In this document: one piece after another, positions 28,963-63,915 of the stretch
Numbering within the stretch: position 1 is the stretch's first letter
How the letters are laid out: each line of letters starts with the position of its first letter
NCBI GenBank assembly: GCA_028874215.1
Contig: JAPPLF010000100.1
Coordinates: 62,001 to 126,000, forward strand
Source: Acidobacteriota bacterium
GTDB taxonomy: Bacteria; Acidobacteriota; UBA6911; RPQK01; JAJDTT01
Reading direction: 5' to 3'
DNA length: 64,000 nucleotides
Translations under genes and position numbers: made by a program
The notes under the pieces: model-generated
The model's database searches: none
The model's input: only the letters and a program-made list of their open reading frames with translations
Told to the model about the DNA's origin: nothing

Positions 28963-29955
28963 ATGACCGGTTCGATAGTTACGATTATTTTTTCGCTCGT
29001 GTTGAGTGCCCCCGGTTTCGCCGGCCGGCTTCCCGCGGAGACCGCGGCGGCTCCGGGCCGTCCCGGTTCGGGTGCCGGATCCACGCCCGAGGGGGTCCAC
29101 TGCAAAGGCCAGCCCCAAGGCACGTCCTGCTGGATGGAGTTGGCCAACCAGCCGGGATGTTACGTCTGGAACAGCTACTTCCAGGAGGACGAGGCCCTGA
29201 CTTGGACCGCAGGGTGCGCCGAGGGGTTGGCTCACGGCAAAGGCACGTTGACGGAGGCCTGGGACGGGGGCAGAAAAAAGGAGGAAAAAACCGGGCGCAT
29301 TGTGAAAGGAAAGGCACTCGGGAAATGGGTCTACCGCGACCAGGATGGGAACGTCTCGGAGGGCCCGTTTAAGGAGGGCATGCGTCACGGAGACTGGGTC
29401 GAGCGCCTGGCGGGAGGGACCGTCCAGGAAGGGCCGTATGAGGCGGGGAAACGGCAGGGCAAGTGGTCTCTGCGCTTCGCTACCGGGACCGTCATGGAGG
29501 GCTCGTTTGCGAAGGGGTACCAAGAGGGCAAGTGGGTGTTGCGTTTCGCTAACGGGAACGTCCATGAAGGCCCGTACAAGGTGAACAGGCGTCACGGCAA
29601 CTGGGTCGAGCGCCTGGCGAATGGGACCGTCCAGGAAGGCCCGTACGTGAGAGGGAGACGGCAGGGCAAGTGGGTGTTGCGTTTCGCTTCCGGGACTGTG
29701 ATGGAAGGCCCGTTCGTGGCCGGGAAGCGTCAGGGTCATTGGGTCGAGCGCTACGCGGATGGGGCCGTCCTGGAAGGCTCGTATGAGGCGGGCAAGGAGC
29801 AGGGGCATTGGGTTGAGCGTTTGGCGGACGGGACCATCCAGGAAGGCCCGTATGAGGCTGGGAAGCGCCACGGATGGTGGTTCAAGCGGAGGAAAGGGGT
29901 CGTGGTTGAGGAAGCGTACTTTGTGAAGGGGGAGGGGGCGTGGGGCCAAAGCTAG
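28963..29955 (+). CDS. exported MORN-repeat protein 1
   Basis: 330 residues: signal peptide (MTGSIVTIIFSLVLSAPGFAG), a Gly/Pro-rich linker, a Cys-containing domain with SCWMELANQPGCYVWN and TAGCAEGLAHGKGTL, then eight exact 23-residue units of the form WVeRLAdGTVqEGPYeaGKrqG and a basic-to-acidic tail. These are MORN-type repeats, which fold as a beta-meander. In eukaryotes they bind lipids or proteins; bacterial roles are mostly unknown. The ATG at 28963 has GGAGG and AGGAGAG upstream. A paralogue with ten units lies 1.4 kb downstream with the same Cys domain. Confidence 0.85.
   Translation: MTGSIVTIIFSLVLSAPGFAGRLPAETAAAPGRPGSGAGSTPEGVHCKGQPQGTSCWMELANQPGCYVWNSYFQEDEALTWTAGCAEGLAHGKGTLTEAWDGGRKKEEKTGRIVKGKALGKWVYRDQDGNVSEGPFKEGMRHGDWVERLAGGTVQEGPYEAGKRQGKWSLRFATGTVMEGSFAKGYQEGKWVLRFANGNVHEGPYKVNRRHGNWVERLANGTVQEGPYVRGRRQGKWVLRFASGTVMEGPFVAGKRQGHWVERYADGAVLEGSYEAGKEQGHWVERLADGTIQEGPYEAGKRHGWWFKRRKGVVVEEAYFVKGEGAWGQS
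29326..29877 (+). repeat. tandem array of eight 69-bp MORN units (protein 1)
   Basis: Eight direct repeats of exactly 69 bp with no indels, each starting at a TGG codon. Units alternate between a VERL...GTVQEGPY type and a VLRF...GTVMEGPF type, so DNA similarity is highest between alternate units. Confidence 0.85.
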
Positions 29956-30056
29956 GCCGTTCTCCCCGACGGGAGATCGATGAACCCGGAGGACACTCCT
30001 TTCGCTCGGCCGTTTTCCATTCTTCACCTCCAGCGTAATTTCATATACTTCGAGCC

Positions 30057-30659
30057 ATGTCCAAGGAGGCCTCCCCGGATCATCCCGTTCACAAATTCAT
30101 CTCGGCGCGCTGGAGTCCATACGCCTTCTCGCGGCGGCTGATCCCTCGCGAAGATCTGCTGTCCATCTTCGAGGCGGCGCGCTGGGCGGCATCCTCGTTC
30201 AACGAGCAGCCCTGGCGCTATCTCGTCGCGAGTCGCGACCGGAAGGAGGAATTCGAGAAGGTCTTGAGCTGCCTGCTCGAGGGCAACCAGGCCTGGGCCC
30301 GCGAAGTTCCGACGCTCGCGCTCGGGTGTATCAGGACAAGCTTCACCCATAACGGCCGGTTCAACCGCGTCGCAGAGCACGATCTGGGACTGGCTTCCGC
30401 GAGCCTCACGTTCGAGGCGACGAGCCGGGGAATCTACGTGCATCAAATGGCCGGAATTCGGCCCGACAAGGCGCGGGAGGTATTTTCCATCCCGGACGGG
30501 TTCGAGGCAGTAACGGCGCTGGCGCTCGGCTATCGGGCCGGTCCCGGCGCTGGAGCCTCGAAATTGCGGGCACGAGACGAAGGTTCGCGCACCCGTCGGC
30601 CCCAGAGCGAGTTCGTGTTCGGCGCCGCGTGGGGAAAGCCGGGTCTTGGATCCACGTAG
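30057..30659 (+). CDS. nitroreductase-family protein
   Basis: 200 residues, FMN-dependent nitroreductase fold. The N-terminal block ISARWSPYAFSRRLIPREDLLSIFEAARW... continues into SSFNEQPWRY, the FMN-phosphate and ring-contact region. A C-terminal segment AVTALALGYRAG also matches the family. It would use NAD(P)H to reduce quinones, nitro compounds or similar acceptors. The ATG at 30057 is the first possible and the N-terminal family pattern follows immediately. It sits between two MORN genes without an obvious functional link. Confidence 0.85.
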   Translation: MSKEASPDHPVHKFISARWSPYAFSRRLIPREDLLSIFEAARWAASSFNEQPWRYLVASRDRKEEFEKVLSCLLEGNQAWAREVPTLALGCIRTSFTHNGRFNRVAEHDLGLASASLTFEATSRGIYVHQMAGIRPDKAREVFSIPDGFEAVTALALGYRAGPGAGASKLRARDEGSRTRRPQSEFVFGAAWGKPGLGST

Positions 30660-30760
30660 AGAGGTGGGCGGCGGTTCTCGACGATCGATTGCCCATCGGA
30701 CCCCTTGCATATATCGTGTCGGAAACCCTCCGCCACCTGTCGAGAGTCAGGAGAACTTCG

Positions 30761-31174
30761 ATGAAGCTCCTTTCGCTGGCCCTTTCCGTCATCCTTGTGC
30801 TGTCGTCCAGCCTTCATGCCGGCCCCGGCCCGGACGCGGTTCACCTCGTATTCATTGAGGATCTGAAAGGCGAGATCTCGGCTGGAAATGCCGAACGCGC
30901 CGGCAACATCGGCGAAGTTCTGACTCTGCTCCAGCGTCCGGAGGTTCAGAAACTCGGCCGCCATTTCGACCTGGAGAAGATCGAAGCTGCAATCCCGGCG
31001 CTCGACGACGACACCCTGGCCCACCTGGCCGATGAGAGCGCACGGATGAACGAGCAGTTTCGGGCGGGAGATTCGGAACAACAGTGCGGATGCGACCTGA
31101 AGAGAGCCATCGCCTTATGGACCATCTTTTGGGCCTCCATAGTGGCCATTGTCGCGATAGCTGTTCTTGGGTAA
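30761..31174 (+). CDS. small exported protein with C-terminal membrane helix
   Basis: 137 residues: signal peptide (MKLLSLALSVILVLSSSLHAG), a helical middle (EVQKLGRHFDLEKIEAAIPA, DTLAHLADESARMNEQF), then a C-terminal helix (IALWTIFWASIVAIVAIAVLG). The layout recalls the PA2779-type family, but the match is loose. AGGAGA is 8 nt before the ATG at 30761, which rules out the longer frame. No partner C39 peptidase gene lies nearby. Function unknown. Confidence 0.6.
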   Translation: MKLLSLALSVILVLSSSLHAGPGPDAVHLVFIEDLKGEISAGNAERAGNIGEVLTLLQRPEVQKLGRHFDLEKIEAAIPALDDDTLAHLADESARMNEQFRAGDSEQQCGCDLKRAIALWTIFWASIVAIVAIAVLG

Positions 31175-31349
31175 CGGCAACTGTCGAACAGCCGTTGGAC
31201 AGAGTGGTCGAAAACGAGCAGACGTTCTGACGAATTCTGATCCGTTCCCACACCGGGACAGCCCGCCCGATGCGCTTCCCGGCGGTACGCGGCTTCGGTA
31301 AGATCAAGAGCAATCGATCCTTCTCCGAGCGCGCCAAGGACAGTTGGGA

Positions 31350-32507
31350 GTGCCCTTGCCAGGTCCGATCCGCACTCTCGTTGTTTTCCTCCTGTTGATC
31401 GCTCCCGGGTTCGCCGGTCAAGAGTGCCAGGTTCCACCGGAAGCCCTCGTGGAACCGGGCGGTTCCGGGGCGGTCCCAGGACCTCCCCCCGTGGGGTTCC
31501 GGTGCAAAGACCAACCCGAGGGCGCGTCCTGCTGGATGGAGTTGGCCAACCAGCCGGGATGTTACGTCTGGAACAACTACTTCGAGCCGGACGAGAACGT
31601 GACCTGGACGGCCGAGTGTTCCGAGGGGTTGGCTCAGGGCGCCGGCACGCTCAGGGAGGTCTGGGACGCGGGCAAGAAATCCCAGGAAAAAACGGGGTCC
31701 CTCGTGGGAGGCAAGGCACAGGGCCGGTGGGTTTACCGCGACAAGGACGGGAACCTCTCCGAAGGCGACTACGAGAATGGGAATAAGCACGGTCACTGGG
31801 TGGAGCGCCTGGAGAACGGCACGGTCCAGGAAGGCCCCTATGAGTCGGGCGAGCGTCATGGCGATTGGGTCTTGCGATTCGATTCCGGGACTGTCATGGA
31901 AGGCCCTTTCGCGGCGGGAAAGCAGCAGGGCCGGTGGGTGTTGCGCTTCGCGTCCGGGAACGTCTCGGAAGGTTCCTATGATGCGGGTAAACGGCATGGA
32001 AATTGGGTCGAGAAATTCGTTTCCGGGACCGTCCAGGAAGGACCGTACAAGGAAGGGAACCGCCAGGGCCGGTGGGTGTTGCGCTTCACTTCCGGGACCG
32101 TGATGGAGGGCGCGTTCGCGGCGGGGAAGCGTCACGGTCATTGGGTGGAACGCTACGGGGACGGGGGTGTTCAGGAAGGCCCGTATGAATCGGGGAAGCG
32201 CCACGGTCATTGGGTGGAGCGCTACCCGGACGGGAACGTCCTGGAGGGCCCTTACGAGGCGGGGAAGGAGCAGGGCCATTGGGTTTTGCGTTTGCCGGAC
32301 GGGGGCGTGCAGGAAGGTCCGTACGAGGCGGGGAAACGCCACGGCCGGTGGGTCGAGCGCGACGCGGACGGTTATGTCCAGGAAGGCCCCTATGAGGAAT
32401 CGCTACGCCAGGGTTGGTGGGTGATGCGCAAGAAGGGGCTCGTGGTTGACATGGCGTACTTTACGGACGGGGAAGGCCAGTGGACATTAGGCCGTACTCC
32501 CCGATAA
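31350..32507 (+). CDS. exported MORN-repeat protein 2
   Basis: About 385 residues, paralogue of the MORN protein 1.4 kb upstream. It has a signal peptide (PIRTLVVFLLLIAPGFAG), the same Cys domain (SCWMELANQPGCYVWNNYF, TAECSEGLAQGAGTL), ten 23-residue MORN units and a related tail (LVVDMAYFTDGEG). No ATG is available at the head. A GTG at 31350, with AAGGA 9 nt upstream, is the best start; TTG at 31344 is an alternative. Compared with protein 1 it has two additional units, after unit 6 and before the tail. Confidence 0.82.
   Translation: MPLPGPIRTLVVFLLLIAPGFAGQECQVPPEALVEPGGSGAVPGPPPVGFRCKDQPEGASCWMELANQPGCYVWNNYFEPDENVTWTAECSEGLAQGAGTLREVWDAGKKSQEKTGSLVGGKAQGRWVYRDKDGNLSEGDYENGNKHGHWVERLENGTVQEGPYESGERHGDWVLRFDSGTVMEGPFAAGKQQGRWVLRFASGNVSEGSYDAGKRHGNWVEKFVSGTVQEGPYKEGNRQGRWVLRFTSGTVMEGAFAAGKRHGHWVERYGDGGVQEGPYESGKRHGHWVERYPDGNVLEGPYEAGKEQGHWVLRLPDGGVQEGPYEAGKRHGRWVERDADGYVQEGPYEESLRQGWWVMRKKGLVVDMAYFTDGEGQWTLGRTPR
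31728..32417 (+). repeat. tandem array of ten 69-bp MORN units (protein 2)
   Basis: Ten direct repeats of exactly 69 bp, each opening with a TGG codon. The order of unit types matches the array in protein 1 with two more units present. Confidence 0.85.
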
Positions 32508-62384: not shown

Positions 62385-63752
62385 TCAAGTCAGCCGGCCG
62401 AATCCCTGTTCCGGCAAGGGGCCCTTCAGCCTGGACTCCAGGTTGTCCTTCCGGAGGGCTTTTTTCAGGACAGCCAGGACCTCGTCCAGGGCCGCCAGGT
62501 AGCCGTCGATGACCTCGTCGGTGTGGGCCAGGGAGACGGTGAACGCTCCCGTGGACAGGTATCCGCGGTCCAGCATTTCCTGGGTCATCAGCGCCTGCAG
62601 CGCCAGACTCTTCTCGCCGTGCCCGAAGGCCATATGAGACATGGGGTATTGGCCGTGCGGCTTCATGTCGATTCCGTGCCGGCGGGCCAGTTTCCGCCAG
62701 CCGTCGTGGACCTTGGCGCCGATCCTCATGGTGTGCTCCGAGAGGCGGACCCGCTCCATCTTGCGGATGGCGGCGACGGCGGCGGCGGGTCCCACGGCGT
62801 CGGTCCAGTAGGTGCTGCTGATAAAGGAACTCTGGGCCGCCTCCATCACCTCCCGGCGGCCGATCACGGCGCCCATGGGATAGCCGTTTGAGGTGGACTT
62901 GGAATACGCGGCCAGGTCCGGCTCAACGTCCAGCGTCAGGTGGGCGCCGCCCAGGCAGAACCGCCAGCCGGCGCTGATCTCATCGATGATCATGACCGCG
63001 CCGATCCGGTCGGCCAGCTCGCGGATGCGGTGGAGGAACCCGTCTTTCGGAGGAACGTCCCGCAGCGGTTCCGTAATGATGGCGGCCAGATTGCCTCCCG
63101 TCCGGTCGATGATGGCCTCCAATTCGTCGATCCGGTTGTAGTGGAAAGGCAGGGCGGTGCCGGCCAGCGAGCGGGGAACTCCCGTCGGGTTCAGGCCCGG
63201 CATGAGCAGTCCGTCCAGGGCGTCGTGGTCCCCCAGGTTGGCCGCCAGGTACCAGTCGCTCCAGCCGTGGTAGCCGCAGAAGGCAACCGTCTCCCGCCCC
63301 GTGGCGGCCCGCGCAATGCGGACGGCGACGGACATGGTTTCACCTCCGGCGCGGGCGTAGCGCACCATGCCGGCCCAGGGGTGGAGCTCGCAGAGCAGCT
63401 CCGCCAGCTCCACCTCGGCGGGCGAGTTGAGAGTGGACATGTTTCCGCGGTCGATGGCGCCTCGAACGGCCGCGTTCACATCGGGGTCCGCGTATCCCAG
63501 CAGGCAGGCTCCCACGCAGTGGATGGTGGTGTCGTAGAAATGCCGTCCGTCCAGGTCCCAGATCTCGCATCCGCGAGCCTTGCTGAAATAGGCGGGCCAC
63601 TGCCGGGGCAGGAACCGTTCGGGCCGCTTGGAAAGCAGTTGAACTCCTCCCGGGATGAGCTTCTTGGCTTTTCGATACAGCCGTGCGCCGGTGGTTTCGG
63701 TCCAATCCACGCCGGAGTATTCCGTGATCTCTTTAACGCCGGAGTCATCCAT
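62385..63752 (-). CDS. class III aminotransferase, glutamate-1-semialdehyde mutase-like
   Basis: 455 residues, PLP-dependent fold type I. Features: TTIHCVGACLLGYADPDVN, CGYHGWSDWYLAA, MIIDEISAGWRF (Asp contacting the PLP ring) and the Schiff-base Lys in DLAAYSKSTSNGYPMG. The pattern resembles HemL-like aminotransferases that act on sugars or amino-acid derivatives. A true HemL role in haem synthesis is unlikely because the C-terminal half differs and the context gives no support. The ATG at 63752 is the first in frame. Confidence 0.84.
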   Translation of the reverse strand: MDDSGVKEITEYSGVDWTETTGARLYRKAKKLIPGGVQLLSKRPERFLPRQWPAYFSKARGCEIWDLDGRHFYDTTIHCVGACLLGYADPDVNAAVRGAIDRGNMSTLNSPAEVELAELLCELHPWAGMVRYARAGGETMSVAVRIARAATGRETVAFCGYHGWSDWYLAANLGDHDALDGLLMPGLNPTGVPRSLAGTALPFHYNRIDELEAIIDRTGGNLAAIITEPLRDVPPKDGFLHRIRELADRIGAVMIIDEISAGWRFCLGGAHLTLDVEPDLAAYSKSTSNGYPMGAVIGRREVMEAAQSSFISSTYWTDAVGPAAAVAAIRKMERVRLSEHTMRIGAKVHDGWRKLARRHGIDMKPHGQYPMSHMAFGHGEKSLALQALMTQEMLDRGYLSTGAFTVSLAHTDEVIDGYLAALDEVLAVLKKALRKDNLESRLKGPLPEQGFGRLT

Positions 63753-63915
63753 GATTCTTGCCTCGACTTTCCGTGGGCGGGCGCCTGCGACAGTTTGTGA
63801 AAGGCAAACGTTAGAACCGACTCCCGGACAAAGTCAACCGGCCCGGCCGGGGTTGAAGGAGACGGTTCACGGAATGCGGTCCGGCGGTGCTGCGGGGCGG
63901 CCCGATTCCGGTTGT

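What the first reader, a model, noticed from the sequence alone, without database searches (positions are those of the whole stretch)
28963..32507. MORN paralogues with conserved unit order but 8 versus 10 units
The two exported proteins share the Cys domain and the order of their 23-residue unit types; protein 2 has two extra units, one after unit 6 and one before the tail. All units are exactly 69 bp. The simplest history is duplication of a complete gene followed by gain or loss of whole units. The signal peptides and Cys-rich head suggest a periplasmic or surface role that is unusual for MORN proteins. A nitroreductase and a small membrane protein now lie between the copies.
Basis: partly seen in the sequence, partly recalled or inferred. 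Interest (0 to 1): 0.5.

Follow-up and report, generated by a model that had tools for sequence, protein, structure and literature searches.

The report
Exported MORN-repeat protein twins
Two neighbouring genes in an uncultured Acidobacteriota genome encode probably exported repeat proteins with a cysteine-rich head and 8 or 10 equal-length units; they arose by duplication, belong to a larger family in that genus and are probably binding scaffolds outside the cytoplasm.

Summary
P1 (28963-29955) and P2 (31356-32507) each have a hydrophobic N-terminus, a four-cysteine head and 8 or 10 contiguous 23-residue (69-bp) units. Unit order is conserved beyond chance (2 of 20,000 shuffles reach the protein score); P2's extra units are its 7th and 10th. 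The array is predicted with high confidence to take the MORN fold (MORN1 of Trypanosoma, Toxoplasma and Plasmodium, Z 17.6-18.7), although Pfam's MORN models miss it. The 8-versus-10 difference is old: two other genomes of the genus also have 8 and 10. In one of these the copies are nearly adjacent, without the nitroreductase, as expected of a tandem pair split later. The pair belongs to a family of about nine loci in this genome, present in all four held genomes of the genus and rare in the rest of the phylum. Exported MORN-type proteins are already described in Fusobacterium, so I rate it a new variant of a known kind. Likely role, inferred: disulphide-capped beta-sheet scaffolds that bind partners in the periplasm or at the surface. 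A host-contact role is possible but untested.

The parts
28963..29955 (+). P1: probably exported MORN-type protein, 330 aa, 8 units
28963..29025 (+). P1 hydrophobic N-terminus (putative signal peptide; end chosen by eye)
   Evidence: hydropathy only; no dedicated predictor was available
29092..29319 (+). P1 head with four cysteines (Cys47, 56, 66, 85)
29320..29871 (+). P1 array, 8 units of 69 bp
29872..29952 (+). P1 tail (irregular last unit)
30057..30659 (+). nitroreductase-family gene between the copies; same place in G001, no match in G002 or G003 at E <= 0.001
30761..31174 (+). small exported or membrane protein between the copies (weak PA2779-family match, E 0.039, below cut-off); same place in G001
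31356..32507 (+). P2: probably exported MORN-type protein, 383 aa, TTG start, 10 units
31356..31418 (+). P2 hydrophobic N-terminus (putative signal peptide; end chosen by eye)
   Evidence: hydropathy only
31491..31721 (+). P2 head with the four conserved cysteines (Cys50, 59, 69, 88); a fifth, Cys24, lies before the head
31722..32411 (+). P2 array, 10 units of 69 bp
32136..32204 (+). P2 unit 7, no counterpart in P1
32343..32411 (+). P2 unit 10, no counterpart in P1
32412..32504 (+). P2 tail (irregular last unit)

Best explanation
P1 and P2 are exported proteins made of a four-cysteine head followed by a rigid, single-layer beta-sheet of MORN units. Shown: the sequence anatomy, the conserved unit order, purifying selection, the stable unit number in orthologues and the multi-copy family in the genus. 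Predicted by model: the MORN fold of the array. Inferred: Sec export; two disulphides in the head, which caps the N-terminal end of the sheet; and an array that serves as a binding or oligomerisation surface (as in MORN1) for a protein or polymer of the cell envelope, of neighbours or of a host, the copies differing in unit number and surface residues and so in partners, or pairing with each other. History: one complete gene was duplicated in tandem in an ancestor of the three species compared, whole units were gained in P2 or lost from P1 before they split, and a nitroreductase and a small-protein gene later came to lie between the copies in the line of G000 and G001 (or were lost from G002).
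For: Fold: 206 of 383 residues at pLDDT 90 or more, nearly all in the array; best solved matches are MORN1 of T. brucei (Z 18.7, 210 residues, 2.6 A), T. gondii and P. falciparum, tied within 1 (Foldseek E 2.4e-16); phmmer to TgMORN1 at E 1.3e-17. Export: 24 of 25 headed proteins of the genus have a hydrophobic N-terminal window (lenient, as the best of several start codons was taken). Head: four cysteines invariant in the 12 heads that I chose for the alignment. Selection: dN/dS between species 0.26-0.36 for P1 and 0.21-0.26 for P2. History: P1 and P2 heads form one clade (99/99), P1 orthologues a clade in it (97/92); 8/8/8 and 10/10/10 units in G000, G001, G002; near adjacency in G002. Binding role: solved MORN1 proteins are called protein-protein interaction modules and dimerise (PMC7725318, abstract and passages).
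Against: Pfam MORN has no match in this genome at E 0.001, and MORN_2 stays below cut-off. The head is not modelled: below pLDDT 50 in the full model and mean 50.4 alone. Other single-layer sheets match the array too, more weakly: the CPAP/TCP10 domain (Z 12.9) and OspA (Z 12.7 at 9.9 A). In G002 the open P2 frame lacks a hydrophobic N-terminus because of an insertion near the start, so that copy may be broken, not exported or misassembled. P1-P2 dS (0.50-0.63) is about as large as P2-P2 dS between species (0.51-0.67), and P2 is not a supported clade in the head tree, so the duplication may be only a little older than the species, or conversion has blurred it. No partner, ligand or location is known.
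Confidence: 0.6

Rival explanations
1. The family consists of host-interaction proteins (eukaryotic-like repeat proteins) by which a sponge- or animal-associated Acidobacteriota contacts or calms host cells.
For: Ank_2 matches number 37 to 60 in the four genus genomes, and one protein in G001 joins ankyrin repeats (nine Ank stretches) to MORN-type units. One genus record is named COS4_bin_49, which may stand for the sponge Coscinoderma; sponge-associated Acidobacteriota are reported to encode many eukaryotic-like repeats (PMC8163846, passages).
Against: The sponge origin is read from a bin name, not shown; a paper search for that name found nothing useful. Genomes of another family of the same order have up to 46 Ank_2 matches and no match to P2. 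I did not look for secretion systems. MORN does not occur in the main text of PMC8163846.
Confidence: 0.3
2. The proteins are periplasmic envelope scaffolds with no role in contact with other cells.
For: A signal peptide alone takes a protein of a diderm to the periplasm; I saw no lipobox, and Pfam shows no anchor or autotransporter domain in P1 or P2. Most subfamilies have one member per genome in the head tree.
Against: The head is found in only 7 of 396 genomes of the phylum, four of them this genus, which is odd for housekeeping.
Confidence: 0.3
3. The two copies exchange sequence by gene conversion, so that their likeness partly reflects copying rather than stable inheritance.
For: In G002, where the genes are nearly adjacent, P1 unit 7 / P2 unit 8 (94%) and the tail (84%) are more alike between P1 and P2 than between that P2 and the other P2 copies (83-86% and 67-68%); in G001 units 1 and 2 are also more alike between P1 and P2 (80%, 87%) than between the P2 copies of G000 and G001 (68%, 75%). 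P1-P2 dS is no larger than P2-P2 dS.
Against: The G001 units 1 and 2 are as near to P2 of G002 (86%, 86%), which points to a divergent P2 in G000 there; at units 6-8 the P2 copies of G000 and G001 are closer to each other (93-96%) than to P1 (78-87%). Unit numbers stay 8 and 10. No formal conversion test was run.
Confidence: 0.2
4. P1 and P2 are look-alikes built separately from the same repeat type, not gene duplicates.
For: MORN units resemble each other anyway: within each protein of this genome they are about 51-83% alike in DNA, and half of the P1 units have their single best match off the ordered path.
Against: Unit order (2 of 20,000 shuffles), alignable signal peptide and head, and the joint head clade (99/99).
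Confidence: 0.03

Closest known systems
MORN1 of Trypanosoma, Toxoplasma and Plasmodium (PDB 6t4r, 6t6q, 6t69, 6t4d)
   Same: 23-residue repeat and predicted fold (Z 17.6-18.7 over 195-210 residues)
   Different: Eukaryotic; TbMORN1 consists solely of MORN repeats (PMC7725318, abstract). That it lacks a cysteine head and a bacterial signal peptide is recalled
MORN2-domain proteins of Fusobacterium nucleatum outer-membrane vesicles
   Same: Multi-copy bacterial MORN-type proteins found outside the cytoplasm; 23 detected (PMC10434195, passages)
   Different: Assigned to MORN2, whose Pfam model P1 and P2 miss at cut-off; not compared by sequence here
LIC20035 family adhesin (NF033566)
   Same: Repeat parts match at E 2.4e-9 (P1) and 6.4e-11 (P2)
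   Different: 36.5 and 41.7 bits against a cut-off of 250, so not members; the best stretches lie in the repeats, not the head
phrog_7324 (phage protein family of unknown function)
   Same: Repeat parts match at 7.6e-14 and 1.7e-13
   Different: No known function; two scans of viral contigs confirmed no relative of P2 or of the head

Membership tests
MORN-repeat proteins | Units forming a single-layer beta-sheet like solved MORN1 | tested here: met
   On a predicted model only: array pLDDT mostly above 90; Z 18.7 to 6t4r, Foldseek E 2.4e-16 to 6t6q
MORN-repeat proteins | 23-residue unit | tested here: met
   Constant spacing of 23 residues over 8 and 10 units; 23 is the length favoured in most published work according to PMC7725318
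Pfam PF02493 MORN | Match above the curated cut-off | tested here: not met
   0 matches in the own genome at E 0.001, with 1 of 14 control genomes ringing; no row for P1 or P2 at E up to 1
Pfam PF07661 MORN_2 | Match above the curated cut-off (29.6 bits) | tested here: not met
   12.8 and 12.6 bits
LIC20035 family adhesin (NF033566) | Score at least 250 bits | tested here: not met
   36.5 and 41.7 bits
Sec-exported proteins | Cleavable N-terminal signal peptide | tested here: inconclusive
   Hydrophobic N-terminal windows in both; hydropathy only, cleavage not predicted
Surface-exposed or secreted proteins | Location outside the outer membrane | not testable with these tools
   Needs localisation experiments
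Eukaryotic-like host-interaction proteins | Binding to or effect on host cells | not testable with these tools
   Only genomic context was examined

The most novel reading that the evidence does not exclude
A genus-specific, expanded class of exported, disulphide-headed MORN proteins serves as a modular binding repertoire outside the cell, possibly towards an animal host, with subfamilies that differ in unit number (2 to about 24), added domains (TPR-like; a headless ankyrin fusion) and membrane anchoring. This would add MORN repeats to the eukaryotic-like repeat proteins used by symbionts.
Probability: 0.25. Interest if true: 0.55.

Novelty: new variant of a known kind. Interest (0 to 1): 0.3.

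Why it matters
The function of bacterial MORN proteins is open (for Fusobacterium the authors of PMC10434195 say so themselves), and the family models searched here miss this group. A four-cysteine head joined to a MORN sheet in an exported family, with fixed unit numbers in most orthologues and very different numbers in paralogues, gives a natural series for asking what unit number does. If the genus proves host-associated, it would be a candidate class of contact proteins.

Tried and rejected
Independent origin of the two arrays: disfavoured by the order test and the head tree. Ongoing unit-number change in this pair: not supported, 8 and 10 in three of three genomes with complete arrays; G003 has only fragments of both at contig ends. 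Other subfamilies do vary: about 24 and 17 G-x-W motifs in L011 (G003) and L016 (G002), and 5, 4 and 2 in L038, L039 and L040, the last in a frame that departs from the others.

A three-unit duplication inside the ancestral array (u1-3 to u4-6) is only suggestive: 914 (P1) and 903 (P2) of 20,000 shuffles reach the value. A basic P1 with an acidic P2 was considered: P1 is the more basic in three of three genomes, but by only 7.8 to 6.9 in G001. Phage or plasmid origin: viral contigs gave no confirmed relative with P2 or the head alignment; plasmids gave 13 records at 25-31% identity with P2, mostly over the repeats, and none with a head query. No anti-phage defence model matched at E 0.1. The head profile matched no solved chain at E up to 1, and its own model is too poor to use, so nothing is concluded on its fold. 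Where the extra P2 units came from is unresolved: u7 is equally like u2, u8 and u9 (76% each), and u10 is among the most divergent units. Paper searches, listings only unless said: MORN repeat with bacteria and secreted, 20 papers, of which I read passages of one on Fusobacterium; with sponge and symbiont, 3, none on bacterial MORN proteins by title and abstract start; MORN with eukaryotic-like, symbiont and sponge, 1, on a chlamydial symbiont, not opened; LIC20035, listing only; 'MORN repeat-containing' with periplasmic and bacterial, 0; a last one on MORN, cysteine, exported and Acidobacteria, 2, not opened.
Full report
OBSERVATION. The window lies in genome G000 (contig C100); three other genomes of its genus are held, and named records of their contigs are titled Acidobacteria, uncultured Acidobacteriota and Candidatus Aminicenantes. 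P1 (28963-29955) and P2 (31356-32507) are as described: hydrophobic N-terminus, cysteine head, units spaced by 23 residues (69 bp) and an irregular tail. The ordered unit alignment is P1 1-6 to P2 1-6, 7 to 8, 8 to 9; 2 (protein) and 5 (DNA) of 20,000 unit-order shuffles do as well. Single best matches are less clean: 4 of 8 P1 units have theirs off this path, on protein and on DNA alike, so the evidence is in the whole order.

WHAT THE UNITS ARE. Pfam's MORN models do not claim these proteins: PF02493 has no match in the genome at E 0.001, and MORN_2 scores 12.8 and 12.6 bits against a cut-off of 29.6. Sequence comparison with solved structures still gives MORN1 of Toxoplasma at E 1.3e-17. 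In the predicted P2 model (seven sequences in the alignment, mean pLDDT 75.6) the array lies mostly above 90. Its best solved matches are MORN1 of T. gondii by Foldseek (E 2.4e-16) and MORN1 of T. brucei, T. gondii and P. falciparum by VIA-align (Z 18.7 to 17.6 over 195-210 residues, tied or nearly so). Other single-layer sheets follow at lower Z: CPAP/TCP10 at 12.9 and OspA at 12.7 with 9.9 A. I call the fold MORN on predicted structure and sequence likeness, not on Pfam membership. The cysteine head could not be modelled, and its profile finds no solved chain.

THE FAMILY. P2 finds 12 matches in G000, at nine loci, one of them a short frame at a contig start. Of the 60 genomes, G000 included, 5 match: the four of the genus (12, 7, 12 and 12 matches) and G038, through repeats only; the 14 other genomes of the order have none. 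With a profile of the head, 7 of 396 genomes of the phylum match: the four of the genus, G136 and G160 of one other genus, and G371. In the class of G160, 3 of 148 match, all in that other genus. From the loci held, 27 headed open frames were collected. Of the 25 from the genus, 24 have a hydrophobic N-terminal window; the exception is P2 of G002. The test is lenient, since the best of several start codons was taken. Of the two others, that of G160 has such a window and that of G136 does not. Most members fall into subfamilies shared between species, with 2 to about 24 G-x-W motifs. One subfamily has a TPR-like N-terminal part (TPR_16, E 0.0017, below cut-off), and one protein of G001 joins ankyrin repeats to MORN-type units without the cysteine head. 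Headless members of G000 and G003 end in a hydrophobic segment, judged by eye.

HISTORY. P1 orthologues have 8 units in G000, G001 and G002, and P2 orthologues have 10 in all three. dN/dS is 0.26-0.36 for P1 and 0.21-0.26 for P2. Heads of P1 and P2 form one clade (99/99) with the P1 orthologues a clade inside it (97/92); P2 is unresolved. In G002, 15 bp separate the stop of P1 from the ATG that aligns with the start of P2 (read by eye), and the nitroreductase protein has no match in G002 or G003 at E 0.001 (G003 is fragmented). In G001 the order is P1, nitroreductase, small protein, a VWA-domain gene (TIGR03436, E 3.3e-56), P2. A tandem pair later split by added genes is the simplest reading; loss from G002 is not excluded. 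P1-P2 dS is 0.50-0.63, P2-P2 dS between species 0.51-0.67, P1-P1 dS 0.21-0.29, and neighbouring genes of G000, G001 and G002 range from 0.21 to 0.59 (G003 comparisons left aside). So the duplication may be little older than the species split, or conversion has blurred it. Likely exchange tracts: in G002, P1 unit 7 / P2 unit 8 and the tail; in G001, units 1 and 2 are ambiguous. No formal conversion test was run. An internal three-unit duplication is only suggested.

MECHANISM (inferred). After export the head would form disulphides and cap the sheet, and the array would offer a long binding face. The authors of the MORN1 structures conclude that MORN repeats are protein-protein interaction modules that mediate dimerisation; they found no binding of TbMORN1 to membranes or vesicles, yet it did interact with individual phospholipids and co-purified with phosphatidylethanolamine (PMC7725318, abstract and passages), so lipid binding is not excluded here. 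A host-directed role is possible: Ank_2 matches are many (37-60 per genus genome), but another family of the order reaches 46 without this family. Sponge-associated Acidobacteriota are reported to encode many eukaryotic-like repeats (PMC8163846, passages). That this genus lives in sponges is my reading of one bin name, not a result.

KNOWN OR NEW. Exported MORN-type proteins exist: 23 MORN2-domain proteins in Fusobacterium vesicles, with functions not validated by the authors' own account (PMC10434195, passages). The cysteine-headed, multi-copy form seen here reaches no cut-off in Pfam or NCBIfam, matches one PHROG of unknown function by its repeats and nothing in PADLOC. I rate it a new variant of a known kind, of moderate interest.

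Noticed in passing
L033 8001-8115 (G002, start of P2): The P2 orthologue of G002 has an insertion of about 23 bases (by eye) near its start, and the open frame lacks the hydrophobic N-terminus; real damage or an assembly error.
   Followed up: partly
L050 1531-3432 (G001): A 634-residue protein joins ankyrin repeats (nine Ank stretches) to a few MORN-type units, without the cysteine head.
   Followed up: partly
L011 (G003) and L016 (G002): A sibling subfamily with about 24 and 17 G-x-W motifs, which differs strongly in unit number between species.
   Followed up: partly
L006 and L028: Headless MORN-unit proteins ending in a hydrophobic segment; L006 has no N-terminal hydrophobic stretch, L028 is cut by the contig end. 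Perhaps tail-anchored.
   Followed up: no
window 30761-31174: The small protein between the copies gives 2 to 4 matches in each of the four genus genomes, itself included; weak PA2779-family match.
   Followed up: partly
L055 907-1956 (G160): A protein of another genus in the phylum carries the cysteine head behind an N-terminal part; no Pfam model matches at E 0.1.
   Followed up: partly
window 63709-63759: A 27-bp tandem repeat of about two copies, far from the MORN genes.
   Followed up: no
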